The notes beneath the pieces were generated by a model. It did not search any database. It was not told the origin of the DNA and worked only from the letters and a program-made list of their open reading frames with translations. From Acidobacteriota bacterium (GTDB lineage Bacteria > Acidobacteriota > Terriglobia > Terriglobales > Acidobacteriaceae), in contig JABDHA010000002.1 in the NCBI GenBank assembly GCA_013285705.1, positions 30,146 through 94,145 on the forward strand: a stretch of DNA of 64,000 nucleotides, read 5' to 3'. The translations under genes were made by a program, and so were the position numbers. Shown here piece by piece: positions 1,377-21,027 of this stretch. Every line of letters begins with the position of its first letter. Positions within the stretch are counted from its first letter, which is position 1.

Positions 1377-2231
1377 TTATTCTCCTTTGGCAGATTTTTC
1401 CTGCAGATGACATGTCGCGAGGAAGCGTTCAGCGCAGGTGGCAAGCACTTCCTCGCCGGGGCGCTTCCACCAGTTTTCAGATGAGAAGATCTCGACTTCC
1501 TGCGGTCCACGATATCCGGCCTTTTCCATCGCAACACGGATTGCTCTGAGATCGATGATGCCGTCACCCATCATGCCGCGGTCGAGCAAAAGATCGCGCG
1601 TGGGGACCAGCCAGTCGCAGATGTGGTGAGCAAAAATGCGTCCACTGGCTCCTGCCCGCGCGATCTGCGCATAAAGCTTCGGGTCCCACCAAACGTGGTA
1701 CATATCGATCGCGACGCCGACTCCGTCTCCCAACAGGTCGCAAACATCGAGTGCCTGCTCGAGTGTATTGATACAGGCTCGATCAGCCGCATACATAGGG
1801 TGCAAAGGCTCGATGGCAAGCGGCATACGATTTTCCCGGGCATAAGGAAGGATGGCGGCAAGACCATCGGCCACCATCTCACGCGCAGCCGGAAGATTTT
1901 TTGATCCTTTGGGCAATCCTCCCACCACCAGAACCAGGCAATCCGCCTGGATAGCGGCCGCTTCATCGATTGCGCGCTTGTTATCGTCGATGGCAGCTGC
2001 AAGACCGGCTTTATCGGTGGCAGGAAACATGCCTCCACGGCAAAGACCGGTGACCCGCATGTTATTCGTGCGCACGATGGAAGCCGCTTCTTTCAAACCC
2101 GTGGTTTGTACCTGATCGCGCCAGGGAGCAATTGCCGTAATTCCCTGAGCGAGACACGCATCCACCGCCTGAGCCATGGTGTACTGCGGACGCACCGTCG
2201 CCAGATTGATGGACAAGTCGCCGATGCTCAC
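1377..2231 (-). CDS. sugar phosphate isomerase/epimerase (xylose isomerase-like TIM barrel)
   Basis: 284 aa ORF; VLVVGGLPKGSKNL, AIEPLHPMYAADRA, GVAIDMYHVWWDP, QEVEIFSSENWW; 4-bp overlap with upstream gene. Confidence 0.88.
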   Translation of the reverse strand: MSIGDLSINLATVRPQYTMAQAVDACLAQGITAIAPWRDQVQTTGLKEAASIVRTNNMRVTGLCRGGMFPATDKAGLAAAIDDNKRAIDEAAAIQADCLVLVVGGLPKGSKNLPAAREMVADGLAAILPYARENRMPLAIEPLHPMYAADRACINTLEQALDVCDLLGDGVGVAIDMYHVWWDPKLYAQIARAGASGRIFAHHICDWLVPTRDLLLDRGMMGDGIIDLRAIRVAMEKAGYRGPQEVEIFSSENWWKRPGEEVLATCAERFLATCHLQEKSAKGE

Positions 2232-3400
2232 GCGATGCCCCCGACAGCCAGCACTTGCCGCATCCGCTGAGCGGCGAGGTCGGGATCGCGCAACACACGG
2301 GCGTTGTCCGCGAGGCGAAACAGTTCGGCAAGATGAACGAGTGAGCGAGCGCTCTGCTGACCACCCAGCATCATGAAATGGTCCTGCAGGCCATTGAGAT
2401 ATGCAAGAAAGACCACACCTGTTTTATAAAAGCGCGTAGGCGCCTTGAAGATATGCCGCGACAACGGCACGGTCGGCGCAAGTATGGAATGAAAACCAGA
2501 CTCGTTTCCCACGCCAAGCTGTGCCAGGGCGGCAGAGGCTGCGGGCGCAATCGCATCGAAGATACCTAAGAGCGCATGTGAGTGGCCCTGCTCGTCTCCT
2601 GCAATCAGCTCTGCATAGTTGAAGTCGTCTCCGGTATACATGCGAACGCCAGCAGCGAGACGGCGACGCATGATGATCTCTTTCTCTGCAGACAAAAGCG
2701 AGATCTTCACACCGTCGATTTTGTCAGCGTGGCTGTTGATGATATCGACGCTTACATCCATCGCAGCCATGTGGTCGTCTGCGCCCCAATAACCTTTTAG
2801 CGCCGGATCGAACATCTCTCCCAGCCAGTGCAGGATCACAGGCTCTTTCATTTGGCGCAAAATCCTGTCATAGACGCGCTGGTAATCTTCCGGCGATTGC
2901 GCGGCGGCGACCAGGGCGCGGCTTGCCATCAGAATGATCCGGCCTCCAAGCTTCTCGACAACTTCCACCTGCTCCTCATAGGCACGGACGACATCATCGA
3001 CAGTAACGCTGCTGCAAACGGGCAGATGATCGGTACCAACGCCGCAGGCAATGAGGGCGTCTGGTCGAGCTCGCGCAGCTTCGAGGGAGTGCCTGATCAG
3101 CTCTTGCGCACCGCTCCAATTCAAGCCCATTCCCCGTTGCGCTGTATCCATTGCTTCGGCCACGCCGAGGCCCATGTCCCATAAATAATTGCGAAAAGCG
3201 ATGGTACGCTCCCAGTCGATGCTCTGGTCAAGCCAAGGATCGTCATCCGCTAGAGGATTCGCAACCACATGGGCTGCCGAATACGCGACACGATTGAATC
3301 GCGGCGGTGCGGAGAAATCCAGCGGCGGCAGCGGGCTGTTCGTAATGGTGTAGGCTTCCAGTTCCCCGTTGTTCGTTGGCAAATTGAGCGCCGGCATCAT
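2228..3400 (-). CDS. dihydrodipicolinate synthase-like protein (DUF993 family)
   Basis: 390 aa ORF; overall look of DUF993 TIM-barrel proteins; same operon. Confidence 0.75.
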   Translation of the reverse strand: MMPALNLPTNNGELEAYTITNSPLPPLDFSAPPRFNRVAYSAAHVVANPLADDDPWLDQSIDWERTIAFRNYLWDMGLGVAEAMDTAQRGMGLNWSGAQELIRHSLEAARARPDALIACGVGTDHLPVCSSVTVDDVVRAYEEQVEVVEKLGGRIILMASRALVAAAQSPEDYQRVYDRILRQMKEPVILHWLGEMFDPALKGYWGADDHMAAMDVSVDIINSHADKIDGVKISLLSAEKEIIMRRRLAAGVRMYTGDDFNYAELIAGDEQGHSHALLGIFDAIAPAASAALAQLGVGNESGFHSILAPTVPLSRHIFKAPTRFYKTGVVFLAYLNGLQDHFMMLGGQQSARSLVHLAELFRLADNARVLRDPDLAAQRMRQVLAVGGIA

Positions 3401-3403
3401 CGC

Positions 3404-4582
3404 CTATACCGCTCTCTCTGCCGCATCTAACGACAACGGAGGCACGTCCAGCCAACGCCGCTCAGACCAACTCTTAAGGCCAAGCTCCGCTAATTGCACG
3501 CCTTTAGCGCCTTCCAGCAGATTGAAGCGCCACGGAGTGTCCGCTGCTACGTGACGAATGAACTCCTCCCACTGGAGCTTAAAACCGTTCTCGTAGACTT
3601 GATTGTTCGGTACCTCGTCCCATTGCTCCTCGAACTTCATCGTCTGTGGCTGGTCGGGGTTCCACACTGGGCGCGGCGTGTTCACGCGATGCTGCGTGTA
3701 ACAGCGGGTCAGGCCAGCCACCGCGGAACCGTGCGTTCCGTCCACTTGGAAAGTCACGAGGTCATCGCGTTTCACGCGCACAGCCCAGGAAGAATTGATC
3801 TGTGCGATCACGCCGTCCTGCAGCTGGAAGGTCGCATAGGCCGCATCGTCGGCATCTGCCTTGTAGGCATTCCCCTGTTCATCGAAGCGATTCGCAATAT
3901 GGGTAGCGCCGACGCAACTGACTGCCTTTACCTCGCCGAACAGATTGTCCAGTACATAACGCCAGTGCGGCAGCATATCTAGAATGATGCCCCCGCCATC
4001 CGCTTTGCGGTAATTCCATGACGGACGTTGCGCCGCCTGCCAGTCGCCCTCGAAGACCCAATATCCGAACTCTCCGCGTACGGAGAGAATGCGTCCGAAG
4101 AAACCTGTGTCCTTCAGCATGCGAATCTTGCGCAAACCGGGCAGGTAAAGTTTGTCCTGCACCACACCGCTCTTTACACCATGTGCATGGGCAAGGCGTG
4201 CGAGCGACAAAGACTGTTCAAGCGTCTCAGAAAGCGGCTTTTCGCAGTAAATATGCTTTCCCGCTTCGATGGCGCGGCTCAGTAGCGCGGCACGCATCTG
4301 CGTCGAACCGGCATCAAAAAATATTGTGTCCTCCGGGTTAGCAAGCGCCGTCTCGACATCGTTAGCAACACGAGTAATGCCGTGACGATGGGCCAGCTCC
4401 CTTACCTTTTCTACGTTGCGGCCCACGAGAATCGGGTTCGGCATCATCCGGTCCCCGTTCGGTAGCGCCACGCCTCCCTGCTCTCGTATCGCCACGATCG
4501 AGCGAACAAGGTGCTGGTTGTAGCCCATGCGCCCGGTGACGCCATGCATAATGATGCCGATTTCCCTGGTAGACACTACCAC
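3404..4582 (-). CDS. Gfo/Idh/MocA family oxidoreductase
   Basis: 392 aa ORF; IIMHGVTGRMGYNQH Rossmann N-terminus, GKHIYCEKPLSETLEQSLSL EKP motif. Confidence 0.92.
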   Translation of the reverse strand: MVVSTREIGIIMHGVTGRMGYNQHLVRSIVAIREQGGVALPNGDRMMPNPILVGRNVEKVRELAHRHGITRVANDVETALANPEDTIFFDAGSTQMRAALLSRAIEAGKHIYCEKPLSETLEQSLSLARLAHAHGVKSGVVQDKLYLPGLRKIRMLKDTGFFGRILSVRGEFGYWVFEGDWQAAQRPSWNYRKADGGGIILDMLPHWRYVLDNLFGEVKAVSCVGATHIANRFDEQGNAYKADADDAAYATFQLQDGVIAQINSSWAVRVKRDDLVTFQVDGTHGSAVAGLTRCYTQHRVNTPRPVWNPDQPQTMKFEEQWDEVPNNQVYENGFKLQWEEFIRHVAADTPWRFNLLEGAKGVQLAELGLKSWSERRWLDVPPLSLDAAERAV

Positions 4583-4778
4583 CTCTTGTTTCTAACGTTT
4601 GTTGCAAAAGTTTTACCGTTAATCATCCATGCTGTGCTGAGCGCCTGTCAAGCATACGTGAACATACAGCCTTCCGGACCCATCCCGGGAATCATGGGAT
4701 CGCCCTATAGAGCTCTCCCACTTCGTGGATCGCAGGCCACTGATGACCCTGCCGAATGGGTAATGGCCGTGGACAGAA

Positions 4779-6023
4779 TCAAATGCGGAGAAAGATTTTG
4801 TTGCGGTACATCCAGAACAGAATGAGCCAGTAAACCAGCATCACCGCCATGCCAAGCATTAGCGGCTCAAGCGCTGACCCAAAAATCTGAAAGACTCTGT
4901 AGCCGAGATTGATGTGAAAGCTGCTGACGATGAAGTTTTCCCATAGATGCGTAATCAGGTATGCCGCAATGGAATTCATACCGACCACAACCAGAGGAAA
5001 TGCCCATCGGCGGTAATTCTTCACATCGATGATCCACGAAAATGCCACGAGGAAAAAGAAGCAGATGCCGCCACTAAAGAGCGTCCAACTGGGAGTCCAC
5101 ACACGTTTCACGATGGGACAGATCCCTGTGAAATGAAAAAATAAAGCAGCGGAGAACAGAATCAGTCCGGCGACGAAGAATCGCCGGAGCGGTATGCGGG
5201 GTGCTGCAGCGCGGAACCACTGACCAGCCATGAGACCGAGCAGCATTGTGCCGAGTGTAGGAATGAAGCTCAGCGTAAGATAACCACCGTCATTAAAAAG
5301 GAAGGGCGACGTACGGGGAAATAAATTCAGGAACCACACGTCGAAGGCTTGGCCGAGGTTGCTGTTCTTGTTCCAGTGTGAAGCAAAGCCAGTGAAGTTA
5401 TGGTGCCAGCCCACGGGAACGCCAACTGACGCGTAGTCGAAATTCGGACCAGGCGCAGGATAGAGAGCCCAGGCCAGCCAGTATCCGAAGAGGATGACGG
5501 CGAACGCGGTCCATTGCCATTTCGGGCGACAGAATGCCAGCAGGAAGGCGACGGTGTAGCCAAGCCCGATCTGCGTAAGCGTATCTTCAAAAGTGAAATA
5601 GGTTTGCGTGCTATGCGTGGAGCGGAGAAAGATTCCCAGTGCAATGAGCAGCAGGCTTCTCCATATCGTATGCAGGAGCAGATGGCCGAAGCTCTGCCCT
5701 TTGCGCATGCGGCTGTGAATGGAATAAGGAAGCGCCACACCCACAAGAAATGTGAATGACGGCTGGATCGTGTCATGCAGGCCGAGGCCGGCCCATTCTA
5801 CGTGTGTCTGGTTGTATGCAAGCACTCGCCAAAACAGACTGCCAGGGTAGGAGTGGGCGATAGTGGCAAAGTTCAGGACCTCGCCCATCATGAGCAGCAT
5901 GACCAGTCCACGATAGGCGTCGACAGCGACATTGCGCCTGGGCGCCTGCACTGCAACGGCCTCAACTGAAGCACTTGCGACTATCGGAGGATATTCTGCG
6001 CTGACTATAGATGACATGATCAC
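4779..6023 (-). CDS. membrane protein, heparan-alpha-glucosaminide N-acetyltransferase-like (DUF5009 type)
   Basis: 414 aa polytopic ORF; VDAYRGLVMLLMMGEVL, FTFLVGVALPYSIHSR. Confidence 0.8.
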   Translation of the reverse strand: MIMSSIVSAEYPPIVASASVEAVAVQAPRRNVAVDAYRGLVMLLMMGEVLNFATIAHSYPGSLFWRVLAYNQTHVEWAGLGLHDTIQPSFTFLVGVALPYSIHSRMRKGQSFGHLLLHTIWRSLLLIALGIFLRSTHSTQTYFTFEDTLTQIGLGYTVAFLLAFCRPKWQWTAFAVILFGYWLAWALYPAPGPNFDYASVGVPVGWHHNFTGFASHWNKNSNLGQAFDVWFLNLFPRTSPFLFNDGGYLTLSFIPTLGTMLLGLMAGQWFRAAAPRIPLRRFFVAGLILFSAALFFHFTGICPIVKRVWTPSWTLFSGGICFFFLVAFSWIIDVKNYRRWAFPLVVVGMNSIAAYLITHLWENFIVSSFHINLGYRVFQIFGSALEPLMLGMAVMLVYWLILFWMYRNKIFLRI

Positions 6024-6536
6024 CTCTCCATGGATGAATCAGCTGACTTCGCGATGGGATAGCAGGTCTTTCGATTTCTTACGAATGCTCTGGATTTCGG
6101 ATGATAGTACATAACCCGTGCGCCTTCCGCAAGAGAATCATGAAATCCTGGAAGTAAGTCACGTGATGGGAGAGGATGTCTGCAATCCTGTGTTAGATCG
6201 GAATCTGTGGAGGACAAAGGAACTTGCAGGTGTGCGGTCTTCAGTTGACAGAGGAGAAGGCCTGCTTCTAAACCACCGGGTACTACGCGAAATCATACGC
6301 AATCATTCGTAACATAAGTTGTCGCGATCCAATGTAGAGGAAAATGCGATTCCGATCCACGACTGAAACAGAATTTCTCGCCGATTGACGGGTGAACACG
6401 GAACAACGCATAGACGAAACGTCTCTCATCTCGCTCTTTTCATACCCTCAGCAACAACCTCTTCAGCTTCAACGCCTTCTATATGAACAGCAAGATTGGA
6501 CCTTACCATCCGCTCCACACGATATATTAAATATTC

Positions 6537-7835
6537 ATGAGTGCCCGCTTACCAATAGAAGAAAGCACCTCCATAACCAGGAAAAATTTCCCCTCCTCTT
6601 CGGGACAGATGTTTCAGGACTATTTCGCCCGTGAGCGCGAAGACAGCTACAAAAAGCATGACCTCATCGATGCCCGGGCGCGAAGGCTGTTTGAGAATAC
6701 GGCACTAGCCTGTTCCCTGGATGCCTATCCGTTTCAAGCTCCATTGAGCACCAAATCAGGGCCTGAAGTGGAGATGGATGGTCACAGGATGTTGATGCTG
6801 TCGTCCTACGATTACCTGGGACTCATCGGGGATCGCCGTGTCGATGAAGCGGCCATTGCGGCGGTACGGAAATACGGTACAGGAACAGGGGGCGTTCGCC
6901 TGTTGACGGGAACGCTGGATCTCCATCAGGAGATGGAACAAGCACTTGCTGAGTTCAAGGGGACAGATGCGGCGATCACCTTCACTTCAGGATACGCGGC
7001 CAATCTGGCGGTGATCAGCGCTCTATTGGGGCCTGCCGATCGCGTCATTGCCGATGCACTCTCACACAGAAGCTTGATGGACGCATGCCGCCTGGCCGGA
7101 GTTCAGGTCCAAAGATTCAATCACAACGATCCGGCCTCTCTCCGGTATCAGTTGGAAAACGGACCAGAGGCCAACCGCACACTCATCATTTCCGATGGGG
7201 TGTTTTCCATGGATGGTGATATCGCCTGCCTTCCAGAACTGATTGCGCTGAAGAAAGAGTTTGACTGCTTTCTGCTGATGGATGAGTCGCATGCGAGCGG
7301 TGTGCTGGGCCGGCATGGCCGGGGAACCGACGAACACTTCAACATTCCGACAGCGGAGATTGATATCTGGACCGGTTCGCTGGCCAAGGCAATCCCTTCG
7401 AATGGCGGATTTGTAGCCGTTTCGCAACGGCTGGCGATCTTCCTGCAACATGCTTCCGCTCCTTTTATTTTTTCGGGCGCGATGGCAGCCCCGGCGGCTG
7501 CGGCGGTTTTGGAAACACTGAAGATTCTGAAAGAGGAGCCCGAGCGAGTCGCCCGGTTGCAGGCAAATGCGACGTTTCTACGCGAGGGCTTGCAAAGCCT
7601 CGGATACGACATCGGGTTATCGCAAACGTCAGTGATTCCGGTGATGCTTCATGACGATGCGAAAACGGCATTTTTTGCCCGAAAGCTGCGCGATCACGGA
7701 GTCCTTGTCTCGCCGGTGCTCTTTCCAGCAGTCGCGCAGGGCGCAGCCCGATTGCGCCTGTGCACCACAGCGGCCCATACACAAGACCACCTCCAATTTG
7801 CTCTGGACGTTTTTGCGAAGATGCGGAACGACTAA
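6537..7835 (+). CDS. PLP-dependent alpha-oxoamine synthase (8-amino-7-oxononanoate synthase / serine palmitoyltransferase family)
   Basis: 432 aa ORF; SSYDYLGL, YGTGTGGVRLLTGT, LLMDESHASGVLGRHGRG, GSLAKAIPSNGG (PLP Lys). True start may be internal (Met at 6609). Confidence 0.88.
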   Translation: MSARLPIEESTSITRKNFPSSSGQMFQDYFAREREDSYKKHDLIDARARRLFENTALACSLDAYPFQAPLSTKSGPEVEMDGHRMLMLSSYDYLGLIGDRRVDEAAIAAVRKYGTGTGGVRLLTGTLDLHQEMEQALAEFKGTDAAITFTSGYAANLAVISALLGPADRVIADALSHRSLMDACRLAGVQVQRFNHNDPASLRYQLENGPEANRTLIISDGVFSMDGDIACLPELIALKKEFDCFLLMDESHASGVLGRHGRGTDEHFNIPTAEIDIWTGSLAKAIPSNGGFVAVSQRLAIFLQHASAPFIFSGAMAAPAAAAVLETLKILKEEPERVARLQANATFLREGLQSLGYDIGLSQTSVIPVMLHDDAKTAFFARKLRDHGVLVSPVLFPAVAQGAARLRLCTTAAHTQDHLQFALDVFAKMRND

Positions 7836-7838
7836 TCA

Positions 7839-8831
7839 ATGCCCGTATTCGTCACCGGAGCCAGTGGATTTCTGGGTGGCCGGCTCACGGAAATGCTCGC
7901 GCTCGCAGGGGAGCAGGTAACGGTACTGGCCCGGCCTACCTCCGACCTGCGGCATCTTTCCGGGCTCGCAGGGGTTCGGGTGGTGCTTGGAGATCTCACA
8001 GAGAACGCCGCGGTCGCGGAAGCCGCGCGCGGAGCCACACACATCTTTCATTGTGCGGCAACTTCTACCGACTGGGCGCCCATGGAGGTGTTTCTCCAGA
8101 GCAATGTGACGGGGACAGAGACATTGTTGGCTGCGGCGCAGCAAGTTCCCTGCCTGGAGCGCTTCATTCATGTCAGCACGACCGATGTTTATGGATATCC
8201 AGCGATTCCCTGCCCCGAGACAGGAGCGCTCCTGGACGTGGGTTTGCCGTACAACCGGACAAAGATCCTGGCAGAACAGACGGTGTGGCAAAGCTCACGG
8301 AATAGACTGCCGGTAACGGTCGTTCGACCGGCAACGATCTACGGTCCGCGCGGGAAAGCGTTTGTCAAAGATATCGCAGACCTGTTGCGGGTTCGTCAGA
8401 TGGTACATATCGGGGGTGGACAGGCGAGGGGTGGCTTTCTATATGTCGATAACGCTGTGGACGCGATGATCGCGGCAGCGCGTAGTCCGCAGACTGAGGG
8501 ACAGGCTTACAACCTGACAGACGGTACAGGAGTGAACTGGAAAATGTATGTAGCAGCGCTGGCCGACGGGCTGGGTTGCAAGCCGCCGTGGATCAATCTT
8601 CCCTATCGTGCTGCGATGGCCATTGCAAGCGCAATGGAAGCTCCGTACCACTGCTTCAGGAAGCTCCCGGGGCGGCCGATGCTTACACGCCACGCAGTCT
8701 CTCTGCTGGGGCGGGATCAGGAGTTCCCCAGCGACAAGGCGCGCGTGGAATTCGGCTTTACTCCACGGGTGTCCTTCGAGGAAGGAATATCCAGGTCCCT
8801 GGCGTGGCTAAAGGGCTTGAACCCAGCTTAA
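7839..8831 (+). CDS. NAD-dependent epimerase/dehydratase (extended SDR; candidate ketosphinganine/ceramide reductase-like)
   Basis: 330 aa; VTGASGFLGGRL, STTDVYGYP, PYNRTKILAE, VVRPATIYGPRG; starts 3 bp after upstream gene. Confidence 0.88.
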   Translation: MPVFVTGASGFLGGRLTEMLALAGEQVTVLARPTSDLRHLSGLAGVRVVLGDLTENAAVAEAARGATHIFHCAATSTDWAPMEVFLQSNVTGTETLLAAAQQVPCLERFIHVSTTDVYGYPAIPCPETGALLDVGLPYNRTKILAEQTVWQSSRNRLPVTVVRPATIYGPRGKAFVKDIADLLRVRQMVHIGGGQARGGFLYVDNAVDAMIAAARSPQTEGQAYNLTDGTGVNWKMYVAALADGLGCKPPWINLPYRAAMAIASAMEAPYHCFRKLPGRPMLTRHAVSLLGRDQEFPSDKARVEFGFTPRVSFEEGISRSLAWLKGLNPA

Positions 8832-10039
8832 GGAAAAACCTTGAAGGCGAGCGAGGCATTCAGGCCGCCGAAGGCGAACGAGTTCGAAAGGCAAGCCTCT
8901 ACCTGCGTTAATCGCGCCTGATTGGGAATAACGTCAAGGTCACAGCAAGGATCGGCGGTGAGGTAGTTTGCAGTGGGTGGCAACGCCCCATGCTTGAGGC
9001 TAAGGGTGCTGACGACGGCCTCAAGAGCACTGCTGGCGCCCAGGGCATGACCGTGCATGGATTTCGTGGAGCTGATCGCAAGCTTGTCAGCATGCGGGCC
9101 GAAGACATTACGGATGGCAGCAGTTTCGATGCGGTCGTTGGCCTCCGTCGCTGTTCCGTGGGCGTTTATATAGCCAATCTGCTCAGGCGCCAACCCGGCG
9201 TCGCTAAGAGCGAGGCGCATGGCACGACTGGGTCCGGTGGCGACAGGCTGCGTGATGTGACTTGCATCCGCGGACATGCCGAAGCCGATAATCTCAGCAA
9301 GAGGATGCGCGCCGCGGGCAAGGGCGCTATCGAGGGGTTCAAGCACGAGCATGGCGGCGCCTTCGCCCAGAATCATGCCACTGCGCTCGGCGGAAAATGG
9401 GCGGCAGGTGTCTTTGCTGATCACTCGCATCGCCTCCCATGCCTTGAGACCGCCAATAAAAAAAGGAGCTTCGCTGCCTCCGGCAATCGCCAGCGGAGCG
9501 GCTCCGGAACGGACCATCCAGAAGGCCTGGCCAATCGCGTGGGCGGAAGAGGCGCAGGCGGTAGAAATGGTATAGGCAGGCCCTTCAATGCCGTACTGCA
9601 TACAGATATGGCTCGCACCTGCGTTCCCCATACTGAGCGGAATGGTGAGAGGATGGACCCGGTTTTTATTGTTGTGAAAGAGTTCCCAATAGCCGCTGTC
9701 TTCGACCGCCCGCCCTCCAAGGCAGGATCCGGTAATGACTGCGGTAGTTTCGCGCAGGTTCGTCGTCCACTCTATGCCCGCTTCGGTAATGGCCTGGCGA
9801 ACGGCGACGACCGCGAATTGCGCAAAGCGCTCCATGAAGCCTATATCTCTGGCCTCGAAGTGCTCTTCTGGCTTGTATTCCCGTATTTCCGCAGCGTTCT
9901 TGAAGCGGACCTGCGAGGTGTCGACGCTGGTGATCTCTCGAATGGCGGAAGTGCCTGAAAGCAAAGCCTGCCAGAAGCTGGCAGTGCTGTTGCCGAGGGC
10001 GCTCACCACGCCGGTTCCGGTAATGACGACGCGGCGCAC
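8828..10039 (-). CDS. beta-ketoacyl-ACP synthase (KAS II/FabF-like)
   Basis: RRVVITGTGVVSALGNS, STACASSAHAIG (active Cys), NAHGTATEAND, STKSMHGHALGASSA; GTG start chosen at 10039 (track ORF extends to 10096). Confidence 0.93.
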   Translation of the reverse strand: MRRVVITGTGVVSALGNSTASFWQALLSGTSAIREITSVDTSQVRFKNAAEIREYKPEEHFEARDIGFMERFAQFAVVAVRQAITEAGIEWTTNLRETTAVITGSCLGGRAVEDSGYWELFHNNKNRVHPLTIPLSMGNAGASHICMQYGIEGPAYTISTACASSAHAIGQAFWMVRSGAAPLAIAGGSEAPFFIGGLKAWEAMRVISKDTCRPFSAERSGMILGEGAAMLVLEPLDSALARGAHPLAEIIGFGMSADASHITQPVATGPSRAMRLALSDAGLAPEQIGYINAHGTATEANDRIETAAIRNVFGPHADKLAISSTKSMHGHALGASSALEAVVSTLSLKHGALPPTANYLTADPCCDLDVIPNQARLTQVEACLSNSFAFGGLNASLAFKVFP

Positions 10040-10040
10040 G

Positions 10041-10307
10041 TTATTCAGTGGGCGAAGAATCTGTCTTCGCCTGGACCAGATGGGTGACACCTTCAATCAT
10101 TTCGTGAATGTTCTGGACCTGCTTGGCTTCCTCGTCGTTGATCTCGATGTCGAACTCGCTTTCAAGGTCAAAAAGGATGTTCAAGCGATCCAGCGAATCG
10201 ATCCCGAGGGATTCAAAGCTGCTGTCGGGATGCACATTCTCTATGGGCACACGTTTCGAGGTCGCAATAACCTTCAAAACTCTATCTTCGATGGTCAGGC
10301 CGGTCAA
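10041..10307 (-). CDS. acyl carrier protein
   Basis: 88 aa with phosphopantetheine site FESLGIDSLDRLNILFDLESEF. Confidence 0.93.
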   Translation of the reverse strand: MTGLTIEDRVLKVIATSKRVPIENVHPDSSFESLGIDSLDRLNILFDLESEFDIEINDEEAKQVQNIHEMIEGVTHLVQAKTDSSPTE

Positions 10308-10462
10308 TGTCAGGAATGGTCCTTGTACGCGATCAATACCGATCCACGTGGGTGCTTAGTCTCTCCAATTTTATCCTGATTTTCGCATCTGACTGAAATA
10401 AGACGATCCACTCCCCAAGAAATCTGACCTGCAGTCGCAAGATACAGTAAAGAGGCCGTCGG

Positions 10463-11890
10463 GTGTCACTCGGTAACTCTGTGTTCCAAGATGCTTCATT
10501 TAACGCCACAAATGAAAGTGACCCGCGGACGAGTACACTGTGGGCTATGACTGTTCCGGCACGAACATTAGGCGCCTTGAATCTGGAGATCCGTGAATCG
10601 CTGATTGCACGAGCGGTTCAGTTGCCTGTGCAGCAGTTCATTCACACACAGGGCGTTAGCAGCGCATTTCTTCTTGTTGCTTCGGTTGCAGCGCTCATCT
10701 GGGCAAATTCTCCGTGGAGTGCTTCCTACTATCACATCTGGCACATCAAGTTGACCTTGTCCGGATTGCAGCTTCCCATTCACGAGTGGATCAACGATGC
10801 CATGATGGCCCTGTTCTTTTTCCTGGTTGGCATGGAGATCAAACAGGAAATCGTCAACGGTGAGCTGTCCGACCTGCGGCGCGCCTCGCTGCCGATTTGT
10901 GGCGGGCTCGGCGGCATGGTCGTGCCCGCTTTGATCTTTAGCGCCATCAATCGCGGCAGACCGGGTGCCCACGGATGGGGAGTGCCCATGGCGACCGACA
11001 TCGCCTTTTCATTGGGGGTACTCGCGCTGGTAAAGGGGATTCCGGCAGAATTAAAGGTCTTTTTGTTATCGCTGGCTATCGCGGATGACATCGGTGCCAT
11101 TACCGTCATCGCTGTTTTCTACACGGAGACGCTGTATCTTAACTACCTCTTCATTGCAGCTCTACTCCTCGCCGTTATTCTGCTTTGTCGAAAGATCGGT
11201 TTTGGACGGCAAATTCTGTATGTCGCTCTCGGTTTCGGCTTCTGGCTGGCAATTTTGCGATCAGGCGTGCACGCCACAATTGCCGGGGTGATTCTTGGCT
11301 TCCTTGTGCCGGTCAAATCCCAGGTCTCACTTGACGACTTCGATGAACTCAGCCGGCAGACGATGGACGAGTTTCGCAAAGCCCGCGCCGCAGGCGACAC
11401 ATCTCTCGCAGCCCGGCAGCTGGGCGCAATGGAGTATCTGATTGCGAATACCGAATCTCCAGCCGATCGCGTCACACGAAAGCTTCACGATTGGATCGCC
11501 TATCTGATTCTGCCCCTCTTCGCTCTTTCGAATGCAGGCGTGACATTCTCGTCGAATATATGGCAATCCCTGATGCACAGCTCTGTTGCCTGGGGCGTGC
11601 TCCTGGGACTATTTGTCGGCAAGCCAATTGGCATCTTCGGAGTATGTTGGCTGGCAGTAAAGCTGAAAATCGCGCAGCTTCCAAAATCAGTGCGATGGAG
11701 CCACATTGGAAGCGTGAGCATGCTCGCTGGAATCGGCTTCACCGTATCGCTGTTTATTAGCGCGCTCGCCTTTGACGACGGCGCTCAACTGGATGCAGCG
11801 AAGACAGCGGTTCTGGTCGCATCGCTTCTGGCGGGCGTATCCGGATATATGCTGTTGAAACGTGTTGCCGGAATCTCAAAACAGGCATAA
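10463..11890 (+). CDS. nhaA: Na+/H+ antiporter NhaA
   Basis: ALFFFLVGMEIKQEIVNGEL, MATDIAFSLGVLALV, SLAIADDIGAI, GIGFTVSLFISALAF. Confidence 0.96.
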   Translation: MSLGNSVFQDASFNATNESDPRTSTLWAMTVPARTLGALNLEIRESLIARAVQLPVQQFIHTQGVSSAFLLVASVAALIWANSPWSASYYHIWHIKLTLSGLQLPIHEWINDAMMALFFFLVGMEIKQEIVNGELSDLRRASLPICGGLGGMVVPALIFSAINRGRPGAHGWGVPMATDIAFSLGVLALVKGIPAELKVFLLSLAIADDIGAITVIAVFYTETLYLNYLFIAALLLAVILLCRKIGFGRQILYVALGFGFWLAILRSGVHATIAGVILGFLVPVKSQVSLDDFDELSRQTMDEFRKARAAGDTSLAARQLGAMEYLIANTESPADRVTRKLHDWIAYLILPLFALSNAGVTFSSNIWQSLMHSSVAWGVLLGLFVGKPIGIFGVCWLAVKLKIAQLPKSVRWSHIGSVSMLAGIGFTVSLFISALAFDDGAQLDAAKTAVLVASLLAGVSGYMLLKRVAGISKQA

Positions 11891-11979
11891 GCAATCTCTA
11901 GTGAGTTCGCAACATATTTCACGATTCCGCTGGACAATGGTACACTAAGGCTACCGCCTAAGTCATTGATAGTAAACAT

Positions 11980-12071
11980 GGAGAGGTGGCAGAGCCCGGT
12001 TGAATGCACCTGACTCGAAATCAGGCATGGGGGTAACTCCATCGGGGGTTCGAATCCCTCCCTCTCCGCCA
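11980..12071 (+). tRNA. tRNA-Ser (anticodon CGA), CCA encoded
   Basis: GGAGAGG acceptor pairs CCTCTCC; CCTGA-CTCGAAA-TCAGG anticodon arm; long variable arm; GGGGG-TTCGAAT-CCCTC T arm; terminal GCCA. Confidence 0.95.
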
Positions 12072-12072
12072 G
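12052..12072 (+). repeat. attL core (3' end of tRNA-Ser)
   Basis: GAATCCCTCCCTCTCCGCCAG, identical to 21007-21027. Confidence 0.93.
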
Positions 12073-12086
12073 AATCTGGCTACCCT

Positions 12087-12102
12087 TTAAAGTGTTGATT
12101 CC
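12087..12102 (+). repeat. arm-type site, inverted partner of 20966-20981
   Basis: TTAAAGTGTTGATTCC is the reverse complement of GGAATCAACACTTTAA at 20966. Confidence 0.8.
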
Positions 12103-12166
12103 ATTACTTATTTCTGTCCTCATTTTGCCGTAGTACAGAGCAAACGGCTTTAGTACACTGAGCGGC

Positions 12167-13309
12167 ATGGAAAACCCCAGTGTCTACAAGCGGTTCATAG
12201 AGCAAACGGTCAAACCGTCTAAGCGCCCGAAGCTGTTTTGGTACTGTCGCACTCCTGAGGGTTGGCGCTATCTCACCGATACCACTGAGAACCGTAAACA
12301 CATCCAGGGCAGACATGTAATCCGGGAGAACATCTCCGTCGACGGTAAAAGCAAACGAATCTATACGCCTCTCAAAGAGAACGAGACGCCCCAGCAAGCG
12401 TTACAGAATGCGATGCTACGCGCCGTCAGCGCTGCTCGAAAGAGAGTACCCACAAAGACACATGACGGGCTTAAAAAGGCAATGAACGATTACATCGCAG
12501 ACCGTGAAGCTCATGGCAAGTTAGAGGCAGCGGAACACGCGAGGCATACGCTACCGGAGTTTCGGTCTATCTGCCCTCAGGTGTCGACGGTCACCGGGGT
12601 GACTCGCCAACATCTCACCGCATTTTGTGCAGCGCTACGAAAGCGGGGGCAGAGTCCTCGAACCGTGAGCAACAAGTATGACCGCATTCGCTCATTCCTG
12701 AAGTTTGCCGGGAGCGATGTCCAGCTATCGAAAAGTGATCGCCCAAAGTTTGATAAGACGTTGCCGACAACGTACACGAAAGCGGAGACGGACGCGCTAC
12801 TCGCACACGCTACCGATTACATGAAGGTCGTCATCTGCCTCGGATTGCAATTAGGTCTTCGGGATCAAGAGATGATGCACGCGGAATGGGACGATATCGA
12901 CAGAGAGCACAGAACGTTTCGAGTCAAGAGTAAGCCTGTTTATGATTTCGGAGTAAAAGATGCAGAAGAAAGGGATATCCCGATACCGGCATCCCTGTTC
13001 ACAATGCTCAATAAGTGGCGTGAGAGTCGCCCTGGCACATCGCTGATACTTGGAGTGGGTGAAGAGTTCCAGAACACGAACGGGCATCTCCTGAGGACGC
13101 TACAGCGTATGGCGAAGCGTTGCAATGTCGAGAACGCCACTCTGCACAAACTGCGCCGAACATATCTCACTCGCTTATTGCAGTCGGGAACAGACATCCG
13201 AACCGTTCAAGCGTTCGCCGGTCACGCTGACTTGGAATCAAGTATGCGTTATCTGAGACCGGCAGGAGCCAAAGAGATGCTGTCTCACGTCGACGCTATT
13301 GATTGGTAA
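12167..13309 (+). CDS. tyrosine recombinase / integrase
   Basis: 380 aa; R (LGLRDQEMMHAEW), HxxR (LHKLRRTYLTRLLQSG), H...Y (FAGHADLESSMRYLRP) catalytic pattern. Confidence 0.94.
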   Translation: MENPSVYKRFIEQTVKPSKRPKLFWYCRTPEGWRYLTDTTENRKHIQGRHVIRENISVDGKSKRIYTPLKENETPQQALQNAMLRAVSAARKRVPTKTHDGLKKAMNDYIADREAHGKLEAAEHARHTLPEFRSICPQVSTVTGVTRQHLTAFCAALRKRGQSPRTVSNKYDRIRSFLKFAGSDVQLSKSDRPKFDKTLPTTYTKAETDALLAHATDYMKVVICLGLQLGLRDQEMMHAEWDDIDREHRTFRVKSKPVYDFGVKDAEERDIPIPASLFTMLNKWRESRPGTSLILGVGEEFQNTNGHLLRTLQRMAKRCNVENATLHKLRRTYLTRLLQSGTDIRTVQAFAGHADLESSMRYLRPAGAKEMLSHVDAIDW

Positions 13310-13318
13310 AAAAAAGCT

Positions 13319-13344
13319 GCCCTCCAGTCCGAAGACCAGAGGGC
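13319..13344. terminator. probable terminator between integrase and tape-measure remnant
   Basis: GCCCTC-14 nt-GAGGGC hairpin just after integrase stop. Confidence 0.55.
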
Positions 13345-13353
13345 GCAAGAGTT

Positions 13354-14761
13354 TTATCTTCTGTGACTCGGAGGAAGTCGACTGTTTTGATCTGCTTTAG
13401 CCTTTATCGCGTCCATGACAGAGCGCTGATGCGTTGCCTGTAGACCCTTAATTACCGCTGCCTTCGTCAACTCGGGGTTCGTCGAGTGGCGTGCGTCGAT
13501 TGAGTAATTGTGTGTTGTTCCACCGAAACCCGATTTCGAGTTTGGAATGATCGTCCCTGCTTTTTTCGGGACGAATAATTCAGGCAATAATGTTGCGATA
13601 TAACCGTGTCCGTTATATCTCTCACCGTTGCCGATGAGTTCAGGTCATCTCTTCACCCTGTTAGGGTGTCTTCCATTTCGCGAACACTGTTCGCTACGTG
13701 CCGAAGCACTGACCGTCACACGTTCCCTTTCGGGCTTCGCTCGGTATTGTCTCCATGTGGAGAGGTTCACCGAATTAGAAAGATTATCGAATAGCATTGC
13801 TGCTACAAGGGGCCATTGAATTAACCCTGTTCACCTACAATCGACATTTGATTTACGGGCGGTTCCCCTCCGTCCGCGAACCCTAAACCAGAAAACAATG
13901 CAGCGCCTGCGGCCTTACCTAGCAGCCCGCTTAGACCACCAGTAAGCTTGCCAATGTGCCGCGCACAGCACCGCCTATATCGGACATACTGAAGCCACCA
14001 AGGCCACCTTTACCGGAACCACCTAATCCGCTTAAACCGGGGATGCCACCGACAATCTTTACCGGCATCGGCTGCTTCCCAAGTCCGAACGCACCCAGTA
14101 ACCCGCCCTCTGCCTTCTGTAAGCCTGCTTTCCCTATCGTTCGCAAACCATTAGCGGCAGCGTTCTTGATGTTCTTTCCAAACTGTCCGCGCTTGCTGTC
14201 GAGTAGAGCGTCGTTGAAGTCTTCAATGAATTTACCGAAGGTCTGCGTCAACACTTGAGGCATATTCACCGTAAGCATCTGTTGTAGCTGTGCGAGTGAA
14301 GTTGTCGAGCTAATGCTCTGGTTATCGCTCTGTACCTGCACCTGTCGGTTTGCCTGGACGGTAGCAATCTGCCTGCCCACGCGCTGCGATTCCGCAACAT
14401 CTCCTACACCATCGGCAGCACGTTGCTGCTGCTGAAGGTCAGAGAGGGCTTGGGTATAAACTTTTGTATTCAAAGTGGCCAAAGAGATTGCGGCAGCATG
14501 GGCCGATACCGCCCCAGTAGAGAGCTGAAACGATATCGATTGCTCTGCTAGGCTGTCCGCACCGTGCCGTTGAATGTCTGCGAGGTCGTCCTGGTATTTA
14601 GTTAGTTCATCGGATAGCATGATTTCGCCGGATGCGGAACCATGTCCACCACCAACTAAGTAATTCCACGCTGCCACTGAATTGAGTGGAATGGACGGTC
14701 GGTCTAGCATGTTGCGTTGTTCTGTTTTGCGTCCACTAAAGGCGCGAGTTAAAAAACTCAT
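13354..14761 (-). pseudogene. truncated phage morphogenesis gene: HK97-portal-like N-terminus joined to tape-measure C-terminus, split by a -1 frame change and a group I intron
   Basis: ORF 13931-14761 starts MSFLTRAF...RPSIPLNSVAAWNYLVGGGHGSASGE (portal-like) and continues as tape-measure-like sequence; a -1 frame continues TGGLSGLLGKAAGAALFSGLGFADGGEPPVNQMSIVGEQG, then intron, then PELFVPKKAGTIIPN...NYSIDARHS. Confidence 0.75.
13585..13823 (-). ncRNA. group I intron (compact, IA-like with P7.1/P7.2), no ORF
   Basis: 5' exon ends ...CAGGGU, intron begins U and ends G; manual fold gives P1 GGGUUA/UGGCCC with U.G at splice site, P2 UAGCA-GCAA-UGCUA, P3 UCUUUC/GGAAGA, P4 UUCGGU/ACCGAG, P5 CUCC/GGAG, P6 CCC-GAAA-GGG, P7 GGUCA/UGACC, P7.1 GUGC-UUCG-GCAC, P7.2 GCGAAC/GUUCGC, P8 CACCC/GGGUG, P9 CUCAUCG-GCAA-CGGUGAG, P9.1 GAUAUAAC/GUUAUAUC; removal joins GEQG to PELFVP in frame. 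Confidence 0.9.
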
Positions 14762-14764
14762 CGT

Positions 14765-15424
14765 TTATGCGGTTCCTTTGTCTGGGTAGGCGAGTGCTCG
14801 CCATTGCTGCCATAGTTCGTTGGCCAATACTTCGTTGCCTTCGGCTTGCGCTTGTCGCTGCCTCTTGTAGAGGTCTTGCATTCGCTGTGTGCGGTCCTGA
14901 TAGGCGATGACGTAAGCACGTCGTTCTTCTATCTCTGCCCTGAATGGTGCTTGCTCGGATTCGGTGAACCTGCTCATCATGTCGTCAAGGTCACGCTCAC
15001 TCAGAGACATATCGAGACAGAACTGGATATCAGCCTGGAGTTGCTTGTCGACAACCGGTTGTAATTCTTTGGGCAGCGATTCAGGGGCCGAAGGACGCTT
15101 CTTCTCTTTCTTGTCGATTGCTGCAAGCGTCCGCTGAAGTAACGCCAAGTCGGCGCGTGTCGCTTCTGTTTTGGGATTCCGCATCTTGGCGGTAAGCGTG
15201 GCAGCGAGTTCGACATCTAACCGGTCAGCGGCAGTGAGCCACGGTCGCGTACTCGATATTTCTGCCCATGCAGTCTTCGCACCCTGGGGAAGTCTCACCG
15301 GTGGATCGCCAAGGGGATCGCTGGGCGCACTTTGTGCGGTCAACCGCTCCTTGTAGCGCTTCGGATTCTGTTTCAGCGTCCCTGAGAGGGACAATTCGTC
15401 TAAACTCTTGCGTTTTCGTCCCAT
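14765..15424 (-). CDS. phage terminase small subunit, P27-like
   Basis: 219 aa; LSGTLKQNPKRYKER...DPPVRLPQGAKTAWAEISSTRPWLTAADRLDVELAATLTAKM matches the N-terminal pattern of P27-family TerS. Confidence 0.7.
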   Translation of the reverse strand: MGRKRKSLDELSLSGTLKQNPKRYKERLTAQSAPSDPLGDPPVRLPQGAKTAWAEISSTRPWLTAADRLDVELAATLTAKMRNPKTEATRADLALLQRTLAAIDKKEKKRPSAPESLPKELQPVVDKQLQADIQFCLDMSLSERDLDDMMSRFTESEQAPFRAEIEERRAYVIAYQDRTQRMQDLYKRQRQAQAEGNEVLANELWQQWRALAYPDKGTA

Positions 15425-16840: not shown

Positions 16841-16911
16841 TCTCCCTCACCTATATAGGAAAAAACGGGGGGTAAATGTCTCAAGAAGGTCAATCTTTTT
16901 TCAACTATTTT
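16841..16911 (-). repeat. 71-bp promoter-like repeat, copy 1
   Basis: Identical to 17732-17802; ends in an SD-like sequence just before the ATG at 16836. Confidence 0.92.
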
Positions 16912-17731
16912 TTATCTGCCCTGTATCACCGCACAAAGTGCGTTCGATAGGGGTCGCGCCAAGGGGATCGGCCAAAGGGTCGGAGATTGTAGTCGCTGTG
17001 GTCGATGTGTACTTTTGACTGAGGATTCCCGGTTGGGTGTTTCCTCGCGCGCGGGTACGCGTAGATTACGTAATAGGACACTCGAAAACCTTACGGTTTT
17101 CTCGGTCTTTTAGTAATCGTACTTAGAGAACTAAAGAAATAAATATCTAGGCAGAAAACGTACTTAGAACACGTTTTAAGTTCAGCGTCTGAGGTAATCT
17201 CAGCCTTATTAGGGCCAAAAAAGCATCAACACCGTCCAAGTACGCAATCCCCGTTATCTCTAACGAAAATAAACCATCTATCTACCGCTTTTGTTAGTTA
17301 CGGTAGATAAGGCTTCTTGGTGGTGTTGGCTTACGGTCCTGCATGGTTTGATGGGTTGTTAGTCCACCAGCGCGTTCTCAGGTTCCGTGCGCTGTAAATC
17401 CGGAACCTAACCATGTCAGCCGCTCAGTGCGTGTATCCCTTTTATCGCAGCCAATCTGCTGCCCTCATAATCACGTACGGATACAGGGACCTATGCCCTC
17501 TGAGGTACGGTTTTATTTTCGACGGTTTGCTCCGTCAAGGGCCGCTTGCCTCTCATCGACTAAACGACTCCACGGGGATACCTGGGTCTAAGATACGGTC
17601 GTGATCTGCAACAGTCCTGCATTCGTCCTCAATGACACGTCAGGGATCAACTTTCGATATGCACGCGGGACGATGATGCCGCCCGGCTTTGACTCCGGGA
17701 CTTTTGGTGTGGTGAGAGAGTTCTAATATCT
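16912..17731. other. ~820-bp non-coding interval rich in inverted repeats; candidate structured RNA or origin/packaging region
   Basis: No minus-strand ORF in the track; perfect inverted repeats at 17279-17309, 17380-17408, 17342-17415 and 17521-17536. Confidence 0.45.
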
Positions 17732-17802
17732 TCTCCCTCACCTATATAGGAAAAAACGGGGGGTAAATGTCTCAAGAAGGTCAATCTTTTTTCAACTATT
17801 TT
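17732..17802 (-). repeat. 71-bp promoter-like repeat, copy 2
   Basis: TCTCCCTCACCTATATAGGAAAAAACGGGGGGTAAATGTCTCAAGAAGGTCAATCTTTTTTCAACTATTTT identical to 16841-16911. Confidence 0.92.
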
Positions 17803-17830
17803 GTAAACCCTCTGTAATCAACACGTGTGT

Positions 17831-18829
17831 CTACTGAGCGTCTTCGTCCTCCGGAGCCGTCTCGGGGACCGTAAGCGCATTTTGTGCACCTGTGGCCATC
17901 ATCCTGGCACGTGTCCGTTCCCTGATCTTCAGTTGTGAGTTGTACTCAGCATCCCGTTCCGCCAGCCTTGCGTTCCTGTCCGCGTGATACTCCTCGCGTT
18001 CGGGTGCAACCTTTTTGCGTATCCGGTAAAAGATGTTTCGAACGGCTTGCTCTGACTTCCCCATTTCCCGGGCAATCTCCTTGTCGCTCAGGCCGTCCAT
18101 TGTCAACTCGGCTGCCCAACGCTCGTGACCCTCAAGAGATTCCGGTATCAAATACTCACCGAAGGCGTACCCTTTGCCCACACCCATAATCATGTTGACG
18201 ATTTCGGGATTGTCGCGAGTCTCAGAGTATTGGCCTTCATCATCGTCTATGTCGACATCGAACGATACGGGAACGTGTGTTGCTCTGTTCTTATTGCGGT
18301 CTCGACGAGCTTCATGAAGGCGGTTGGTGCAGATGGTGTTAACCAACATCTCGAACTCCGTGGAATCGCCCTCGAAGGTGGCCATACGTTCCCAGACTGC
18401 GATTAAAACTTCCTGTGTCCAGTCGCACGCATCCAGCATCTGGCCGTCTGCTCCGCGCCCCTGATCCATTTCCTTATCGAACGAATAGAGGCGTTGCTTG
18501 GCGCGGTCCTCAACAGCTTTGAGTAGCTTGCTTTCGCTCCCTGAGAGGAGCCATGTGTAAAAGCCATCGCTTATGCGTTGCGAGATGGACCGCTTCTTAC
18601 TTTTGGGCCGTGGTGCGTCTACGATCACGTGATCGCTGCTCAGTCCCACATCCTCAGGTGTCAGCGTGCGAACCTCACCGTGGCCGCCTGCTACACGCTT
18701 GGCTTCGCTTCGTGCTACCCGCTTCGCTTCCTTCTCTTGCTCCTTTAGCCATTCGGCAGCTATGTCCTGCTCACGTTCTTGTTCCTCTAATTCCAACTGC
18801 TTCTCATCTTCCGGGTTGTCAAAATACAT
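17831..18829 (-). CDS. sigma-70 family (ECF-like) RNA polymerase sigma factor with long N- and C-terminal extensions
   Basis: Region 2-like DACDWTQEVLIAVWERMATFEGDSTEFEMLVNTICTNRLHEARRDRNKN; region 4-like AAELTMDGLSDKEIAREMGKSEQAVRNIFYRIRKKV; start at 18829 has AAAGGAG SD. Confidence 0.78.
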   Translation of the reverse strand: MYFDNPEDEKQLELEEQEREQDIAAEWLKEQEKEAKRVARSEAKRVAGGHGEVRTLTPEDVGLSSDHVIVDAPRPKSKKRSISQRISDGFYTWLLSGSESKLLKAVEDRAKQRLYSFDKEMDQGRGADGQMLDACDWTQEVLIAVWERMATFEGDSTEFEMLVNTICTNRLHEARRDRNKNRATHVPVSFDVDIDDDEGQYSETRDNPEIVNMIMGVGKGYAFGEYLIPESLEGHERWAAELTMDGLSDKEIAREMGKSEQAVRNIFYRIRKKVAPEREEYHADRNARLAERDAEYNSQLKIRERTRARMMATGAQNALTVPETAPEDEDAQ

Positions 18830-19320
18830 GTCATGGTCTCCTTTAAATTGAATTGCGCCCATTCAAGAGCTTGTGTTTGGTTCGGTTTCATACTGCGTGA
18901 TCGTCAAGCGGGCAATAAAAAAGCCCACCTATAAGGTGAGCGCGTGTCGTCATGGATAGAGGCCATCCGTTCTCGGTATATCAGGCGCTCACGTTTTCAT
19001 CGGTACATCCTTTTTGGGGGTCATCTGGTTTGGAGACCAGAGACACCTGTGACTACTATTCCTAGAATATCAAACGGGCAACCCGAAGTCAAGACTTATC
19101 CTCGGATGCACCATTTCTAGGGCACAAACCGAGTCATCGCCACGTTGCCCTGTAGCGCGTCCGTTTTCGCTTACTGTGGGATTGCCTGTCCGAGAGGCTA
19201 CAAGTCGAACCTGGGCCGGTCAGCGCCTTACCGTGAGCGATGCCAATATCGGTATCTGACCATAGCTGGCCATTTTCCAAAATTAGGCTCTCAAGGGAAC
19301 TTGGCTTTGGAATTATATAC

Positions 19321-21006: not shown

Positions 21007-21027
21007 GAATCCCTCCCTCTCCGCCAG
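21007..21027 (+). repeat. attR core
   Basis: GAATCCCTCCCTCTCCGCCAG identical to tRNA-Ser 3' end. Confidence 0.93.

What the first reader, a model, noticed from the sequence alone, without database searches (positions are those of the whole stretch)
13585..13823. Compact 239-nt group I intron inside a tape-measure-like gene, splitting the GEQG^PELFVP motif
Seen directly on the minus strand: the frame ...FADGGEPPVNQMSIVGEQG stops at a UAA immediately after GGU, and PELFVPKKAGTIIPN resumes 239 nt later in frame. The 5' exon ends in U and the intron ends in G. I could fold a complete group I core by hand: P1 with a U.G at the splice site, P2, P3, P4, P5, P6, P7 (GGUCA/UGACC), two stems between P7 and P3 (P7.1, P7.2, typical of IA introns of phages), P8 CACCC/GGGUG, and P9 and P9.1. 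Intron nt 2-7 (AAUUCA) are exactly complementary to the 3' exon UGAAUU, giving P10. There is no internal homing endonuclease ORF. The ORF track hides this as two unrelated ORFs (276 aa and 77 aa, the latter starting at a TTG that is really the intron's last nucleotides). Group I introns in phage genes are established knowledge; one at this tape-measure site in an acidobacterial island may be undescribed.
Basis: partly seen in the sequence, partly recalled or inferred. Interest (0 to 1): 0.93.

Follow-up and report, generated by a model that had tools for sequence, protein, structure and literature searches.

The report
Self-splicing intron in tape-measure gene remnant
A small self-splicing RNA intron without an endonuclease gene sits in the most conserved spot of a phage tail-ruler gene, but that gene now looks like a broken fusion inside a 9-kb integrated phage-like element; it is a clean new example of a known kind of intron rather than a new kind of thing.

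Summary
Window 13823..13585 (minus strand, 239 nt) is a group I intron. Rfam RF00028 scores 56.4 bits (cut-off 50). A model I built from 21 related phage introns, leaving this one out, scores 114.8 bits, with the next window hit at 13.9. P3 pairs in all 23 aligned introns with compensatory changes in all 6 pairs; P7 pairs in all 23 with compensatory changes in 3 of 5. Uninterrupted homologues reading GEQGPEL fix the splice site. There is no homing-endonuclease ORF.

The split gene is not an intact tape-measure gene: its first ~50 codons match a phage portal protein, the rest is only the C-terminal half of a tape-measure protein, and the frame breaks between 13933 and 14012, upstream of the splice site. 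It lies in an 8,955-bp element with 21-bp repeats at a tRNA-Ser gene.

Spliced introns in tape-measure genes are known (phage ICP1, PMC10448857). The site here, the C-terminal GEQG^PEL motif, was not found occupied elsewhere. Verdict: new member of a known kind. Splicing itself is inferred, not shown.

The parts
13585..13823 (-). group I intron, 239 nt, no internal homing-endonuclease ORF
   Evidence: RF00028 56.4 bits over 13621-13832; model R1 built without this sequence 114.8 bits over 13639-13792; only RF00028 hit in its genome
13824..13827 (-). 5' exon strand of P1 (GGGU), pairs with intron GCCC at 13810-13813, U.G at the splice site
   Evidence: coordinates
13792..13805 (-). P2 hairpin (UAGCA-GCAA-UGCUA)
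13778..13783 (-). P3 5' strand (UCUUUC), pairs with 13669-13674 (GGAAGA)
   Evidence: 100% paired and 6 of 6 pairs with double changes in 23 introns
13720..13773 (-). P4-P5-P6 domain (P4 13769-13773 with 13741-13745; P5 13750-13763; P6/P6a 13720-13740)
   Evidence: P4 invariant; P5 and P6 covary; matches phage introns in DNA polymerase, terminase and tape-measure genes
13710..13714 (-). P7 5' strand (GGUCA), pairs with 13643-13647 (UGACC)
   Evidence: 100% paired, 3 of 5 pairs with double changes in 23 introns
13680..13709 (-). P7.1 (13698-13709) and P7.2 (13680-13694) hairpins
13654..13668 (-). P8 hairpin CACCCU/AGGGUG
   Evidence: outer 4 pairs 94.7% paired with double changes
13597..13638 (-). 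P9 (13621-13638) and P9.1 (13597-13619) hairpins
13577..13582 (-). 3' exon strand of P10 (UGAAUU), pairs with intron nt 2-7 (13817-13822)
   Evidence: 6-nt Watson-Crick run, 0.36% of random exons
13824..14761 (-). 5' exon region: portal-like N-terminus (first ~50 codons) fused to the C-terminal half of a tape-measure protein; frame break between 13933 and 14012
13354..13584 (-). 3' exon, 76 codons plus stop, PELFVPKKAGTIIPN..., C-terminus of the tape-measure protein
13319..13344 (-). intrinsic-terminator-like hairpin just after the stop codon
   Evidence: 11-pair stem then T-run
12052..12072 (+). attachment-site repeat at the 3' end of tRNA-Ser (11980-12071), GAATCCCTCCCTCTCCGCCAG
21007..21027 (+). 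second copy of the attachment-site repeat; element is 8,955 bp repeat to repeat
12167..13309 (+). tyrosine integrase of the element
   Evidence: PF00589 E 6.7e-21; phrog_1
14765..15424 (-). terminase small subunit-like gene directly upstream of the split gene
   Evidence: phrog_83 E 3.8e-6, N-terminal 82 aa only

Best explanation
It is a phage-type group I intron without an endonuclease gene that inserted into the codons for the conserved GEQG/PEL motif near the C-terminus of a phage tape-measure gene. When transcribed it should fold into the standard core, use an external guanosine to cut after the U of GGU, and join GGU to CCU through P1 and P10, restoring GEQGPELFVP (inferred from anatomy; splicing not shown). 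Without its own endonuclease it probably arrived by recombination or by homing driven by an endonuclease encoded elsewhere (inferred). The phage gene later suffered a deletion that fused a portal start to the tape-measure C-terminus, plus a frame break. So in the present 9-kb integrated element the intron is most likely a structurally intact passenger in a dead or dying gene.
For: Rfam group I hit above the curated cut-off. Independent model of 21 phage introns gives 114.8 bits against 13.9 for the next hit in 64 kb. Compensatory change: covariation score 0.488, against 0.162 in shuffles and at most 0.128 in slid controls; P3 and P7 pair in all 23 sequences. Exact intron-minus homologues at the junction: 541 viral loci related to the joined sequence, with all 80 kept loci carrying uninterrupted GEQGPEL, plus two same-genus tape-measure genes reading VGEEGPE. 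Immediate in-frame stop at the intron start and a length not divisible by 3. Complete P1 and P10 with U.G and a terminal G. Truncation: full-length relatives of 753-772 aa begin to match only at residue ~52-61 of the 276-aa ORF, whose first ~50 residues are 47% identical over 36 aa to a same-genus portal protein (portal by PHROGs, E 4e-102). Frame break. Integrated element.
Against: No RNA evidence of splicing. The portal match rests on a short stretch (36 aa, E 8e-7 in a small local database). The frame break could be a one-base error in a draft assembly (genome 59% complete, 229 contigs), although no homopolymer longer than 3 lies in the interval. If the gene were dead for long, the intron should decay too, yet its core is intact, so decay is either recent or not real.
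Confidence: 0.88

Rival explanations
1. The intron is present and the split gene is still functional: the portal/tape-measure fusion is a working protein of a small phage satellite, the frame break is an assembly error, and splicing is needed to make the protein.
For: The fusion is in frame at its junction. The gene starts 4 nt after the terminase-small-subunit gene and ends in a strong terminator. The intron core is undamaged. Satellites that carry tape-measure genes have been described (PMC10448857). A same-genus element with integrase, replication, portal, protease, capsid, adaptor and tape-measure genes exists (L108).
Against: The tape-measure part lacks its first ~400 residues. The frame break is not in a homopolymer. 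The element has no recognisable large terminase, capsid or tail genes among the ORFs scanned.
Confidence: 0.12
2. The intron has lost splicing and is only a fossil: the core fold is recognisable but no longer active.
For: It lies in a probably broken gene with no selection on exon joining.
Against: Every core helix is intact, including P7 and J8/7, with P1 and P10 matched to both exons.
Confidence: 0.15
3. The 239 nt are not an intron but an insertion or misassembly that happens to fold.
For: None found; draft assembly only.
Against: 114.8 bits to an independent model, P3/P7 covariation, exact restoration of a conserved motif.
Confidence: 0.01

Closest known systems
Group I introns in the tape-measure gene of Vibrio phage ICP1 (PMC10448857) and, seen here, of Shewanella phage 1/4 and Vibrio phage 1.193.O
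   Same: Introns interrupting a phage tape-measure gene; the Shewanella and Vibrio introns share the P4-P6 core with this one (79-82% identity over about 60 nt), and the Vibrio one is a row of the alignment. ICP1 splicing was shown by RNA-seq and RT-PCR.
   Different: In the two phages read here the site is in the central region (...LLGLSAEES...), not the C-terminal GEQG/PEL motif, and HNH endonuclease genes lie in the interrupted region. Those are phage isolates with the whole gene present in pieces; here the gene is truncated and integrated.
Phage introns in DNA polymerase and terminase genes (Erwinia phage phiEa1H, Escherichia phages K1F and K1E, Klebsiella and Lelliottia phages)
   Same: Among the highest-identity core matches, 82-87% over 40-52 nt.
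   Different: Different host genes and insertion sites.
IMG/VR contig 3300032893_001435 intron (L122)
   Same: Closest whole-length relative: 75% identity over 195 nt, same architecture including P7.1/P7.2.
   Different: Sits upstream of what reads as a portal gene and beside an HNH nuclease (my reading of the translation).
Bacterial tRNA and 23S rRNA group I introns
   Same: Same catalytic core family. Of the R1 hits in 396 genomes of the phylum, the 15 flanks I printed mostly lie in tRNA genes.
   Different: Lower score to the phage-intron model (77 bits or less against 114.8) and inserted in structural RNA genes.

Membership tests
Group I intron (Rfam RF00028) | Covariance-model score above the curated cut-off | tested here: met
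   56.4 bits, cut-off 50
Group I intron (Rfam RF00028) | P3-P8 and P4-P6 domains with the P7 pseudoknot, supported by compensatory changes | tested here: met
   P3 100% paired, 6/6 double-changed; P7 100% paired, 3/5 double-changed; 32 of 43 pairs double-changed
Group I intron (Rfam RF00028) | 5' exon ends in U paired to G in P1; intron ends in G | tested here: met
   GGU.G and terminal G
Group I intron (Rfam RF00028) | Removal restores a conserved uninterrupted homologue | tested here: met
   GEQGPEL uninterrupted in 80 viral loci examined and VGEEGPE in same-genus genes
Group I intron (Rfam RF00028) | GTP-dependent self-splicing | not testable with these tools
   needs RNA
Phage group IA-type subfamily (P7.1/P7.2 between P7 and P3) | Extra hairpins between the P7 5' strand and the P3 3' strand, and the phage core sequence | tested here: met
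   P7.1 and P7.2 form; 114.8 bits to a phage-intron model. Formal IA subgroup assignment with GISSD models was not available
Mobile (homing) group I intron | Encodes or sits beside a homing endonuclease | tested here: not met
   No ORF over 50 aa lies wholly inside on the sense strand (50-aa ATG ORF 13645-13797 with no assigned function); no endonuclease among the neighbouring ORFs scanned
Phage tape-measure gene | Full-length protein with intact reading frame | tested here: not met
   first ~400 residues missing, portal-like start, frame break
Phage satellite (PICI/cfPICI-like) | Integrase, attachment sites, terminase small subunit, replication genes, no full virion set | tested here: inconclusive
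   integrase, tRNA attachment repeats and TerS-like gene found; no replication initiator recognised; could equally be a decayed prophage

The most novel reading that the evidence does not exclude
The portal/tape-measure fusion is a functional satellite protein that interferes with a helper phage, and GTP-dependent splicing of this endonuclease-free intron gates its production during helper infection.
Probability: 0.04. Interest if true: 0.7.

Novelty: new member of a known kind. Interest (0 to 1): 0.38.

Why it matters
It adds a C-terminal, highly conserved tape-measure site to the list of phage intron targets, and shows a phage-type intron entering a bacterial chromosome on an integrated phage element. 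In a sample of 396 genomes of the phylum it is by far the best match to the phage-intron model, and the other hits whose flanks I printed mostly lie in tRNA genes. It also shows a practical gap: a routine Rfam scan of the whole window misses it even though its score exceeds the cut-off, so short endonuclease-free introns in phage genes are probably under-annotated.

Tried and rejected
Same-site introns elsewhere: a pattern joining a GEQG-encoding 5' exon to the intron core gave 8 viral stretches and 27 genome stretches. On reading them, the five that carry a true intron core (L119, L137, L145, L189, L209) have the GEQG codons out of frame in another gene, and the rest show no intron core. The pattern needs the sequence AATTCGGTGAA, so more divergent introns at this site would be missed. 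A core pattern scan gave 116 viral stretches, 80 of them listed; none showed tape-measure flanks by a simple motif test. Model R1 over 85 tape-measure-bearing and related loci found no intron. A 276-aa tblastn against phages gave nothing, and PHROGs and Pfam do not recognise the gene; relatives came from whole-genome and viral-contig searches instead. A programmed -1 frameshift was considered for the frame break: I saw no canonical slippery heptamer in the 82-nt interval (my reading), so I prefer a one-base loss, real or from assembly. The L017 row of the alignment was cut in the wrong frame by me and is not used; one search gives the valid comparison.

Full report
What is there. On the minus strand a reading frame ending ...FADGGEPPVNQMSIVGEQG stops at a UAA directly after the GGU codon at 13824, and PELFVPKKAGTIIPN starts at 13584; the 239 nt between are 13823..13585. 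Rfam group I intron scores 56.4 bits, above its cut-off of 50, and it is the only such hit in the genome. At Rfam's default fast filters the whole-window scan does not list it, so routine annotation would miss it.

Structure. All helices of a group I core form, including the P7 pseudoknot, P7.1 and P7.2, P9 and P9.1, P1 with a U.G pair at the splice site and P10. I collected related introns from viral contigs and phages by their P4-P6 core, aligned 23 diverse ones, this one included, and counted base pairs for the structure drawn from this intron: 89.1% of cells pair against 69.2% in shuffles; 190 cells change on both sides against 59; P3 pairs in all 23 with double changes at 6 of 6 pairs, and P7 in all 23 with double changes at 3 of 5. 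Sliding the partners by 1-3 columns drops pairing below 45%. As an independent test I built a model from 21 of the introns without the window sequence: it finds the window intron at 114.8 bits, E 7.4e-24, with the next hit at 13.9 bits.

Splice site. Uninterrupted homologues of the joined sequence are common: 25 phage records, most annotated as tape-measure genes, and 541 viral loci; all 80 kept loci read GEQGPEL without a break. Two tape-measure genes in a genome of the same genus read VVGEEGPEVW. Removal of exactly 239 nt restores the motif.

The host gene. The 276-aa ORF 13931-14761 is not in the frame of the 5' exon; the frame must change between 14012 and 13933. Full-length relatives (753-772 aa) match only from residue ~52-61 of this ORF onward, and its first ~50 residues resemble the start of a portal protein of a same-genus element (47% over 36 aa; that protein is a portal by PHROGs, E 4e-102). 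I read this as a deletion that fused a portal start to the tape-measure C-terminus, followed by a frame break; the frame break could still be an assembly error.

The element. tRNA-Ser (11980-12071) ends in a 21-bp sequence repeated at 21007-21027, 8,955 bp away. Next to the tRNA is a tyrosine integrase; a terminase-small-subunit-like gene lies directly upstream of the split gene. No large terminase, capsid or tail genes were recognised among the ORFs scanned. It is a decayed prophage or a satellite; I cannot decide which.

Distribution. Model R1 over 396 genomes of the same phylum hits 18 genomes. I printed flanks for 15 of the 20 non-window loci. Most show tRNA sequence around the intron: a tRNA-like 5' half before it, or a T-arm and 3' end after it. 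At least L277 shows no such sequence and was not resolved. ARAGORN reports no intron-containing tRNA at the intron in these loci, so that reading is mine from the sequence. The window intron is the best match by 37 bits. No other intron was found at the GEQG/PEL site in viral or genome collections, and none in 85 tape-measure-bearing and related loci.

Known or new. Introns in phage tape-measure genes are known: ICP1 has three, with splicing shown by RNA-seq and RT-PCR (PMC10448857). Shewanella phage 1/4 and Vibrio phage 1.193.O, found here by their similarity to this intron, have theirs in the central part of a different tape-measure type, with HNH genes. Endonuclease-free introns that home with the help of a separate endonuclease are known (PMC3984707). 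So this is a new member of a known kind, at a site I have not found described. A library search for papers holding group I intron, Acidobacteri and prophage together returned nothing, but the library is partial and the host phylum was not verified here.

Shown: the intron fold, the boundaries, the homologues, the truncation, the frame break in this assembly, the repeats. Inferred: splicing, arrival by recombination or assisted homing, gene death.

Noticed in passing
window 16841-16925 and 17732-17816: 85-nt direct repeat, 93% identical, 891 nt apart, inside the element; it carries the start of two small ORFs (MTFLRHLPPVFSYIGEG...) and may be a duplicated control region.
   Followed up: no
window 17831-18862: 343-aa ORF with sigma-70 region 2 and region 4 similarity, a possible phage-type sigma factor inside the element.
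   Followed up: no
window 14765-15424: Terminase-small-subunit-like only in its N-terminal ~82 residues; the C-terminal ~100 residues match nothing convincing, so this gene may also be a fusion.
   Followed up: partly
L108 (G001:C419) 3143-13634: Same-genus element with integrase, replication initiator, portal, protease, major capsid, adaptor and full-length tape-measure gene; no terminase was named among the ORFs scanned. Possibly a satellite or reduced prophage.
   Followed up: partly
L228 (Shewanella phage 1/4, KJ018209) 2200-3200: The sequence after the tape-measure fragment appears to hold several intron cores in a row plus an HNH gene, resembling the three-intron tape-measure gene of ICP1.
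   Followed up: no
L119, L137, L145, L189, L209: A recurrent phage intron whose upstream exon reads GGTGAGCAAGGACTTGGGT in another gene; same intron family, host gene not identified.
   Followed up: no
L277 (G148:C107): R1 hit of 44.2 bits without recognisable tRNA flanks; host gene not determined.
   Followed up: no
window 13621-13832, minus strand: The whole-window Rfam scan at default filters misses a hit that scores above the family cut-off when a short stretch is searched.
   Followed up: yes
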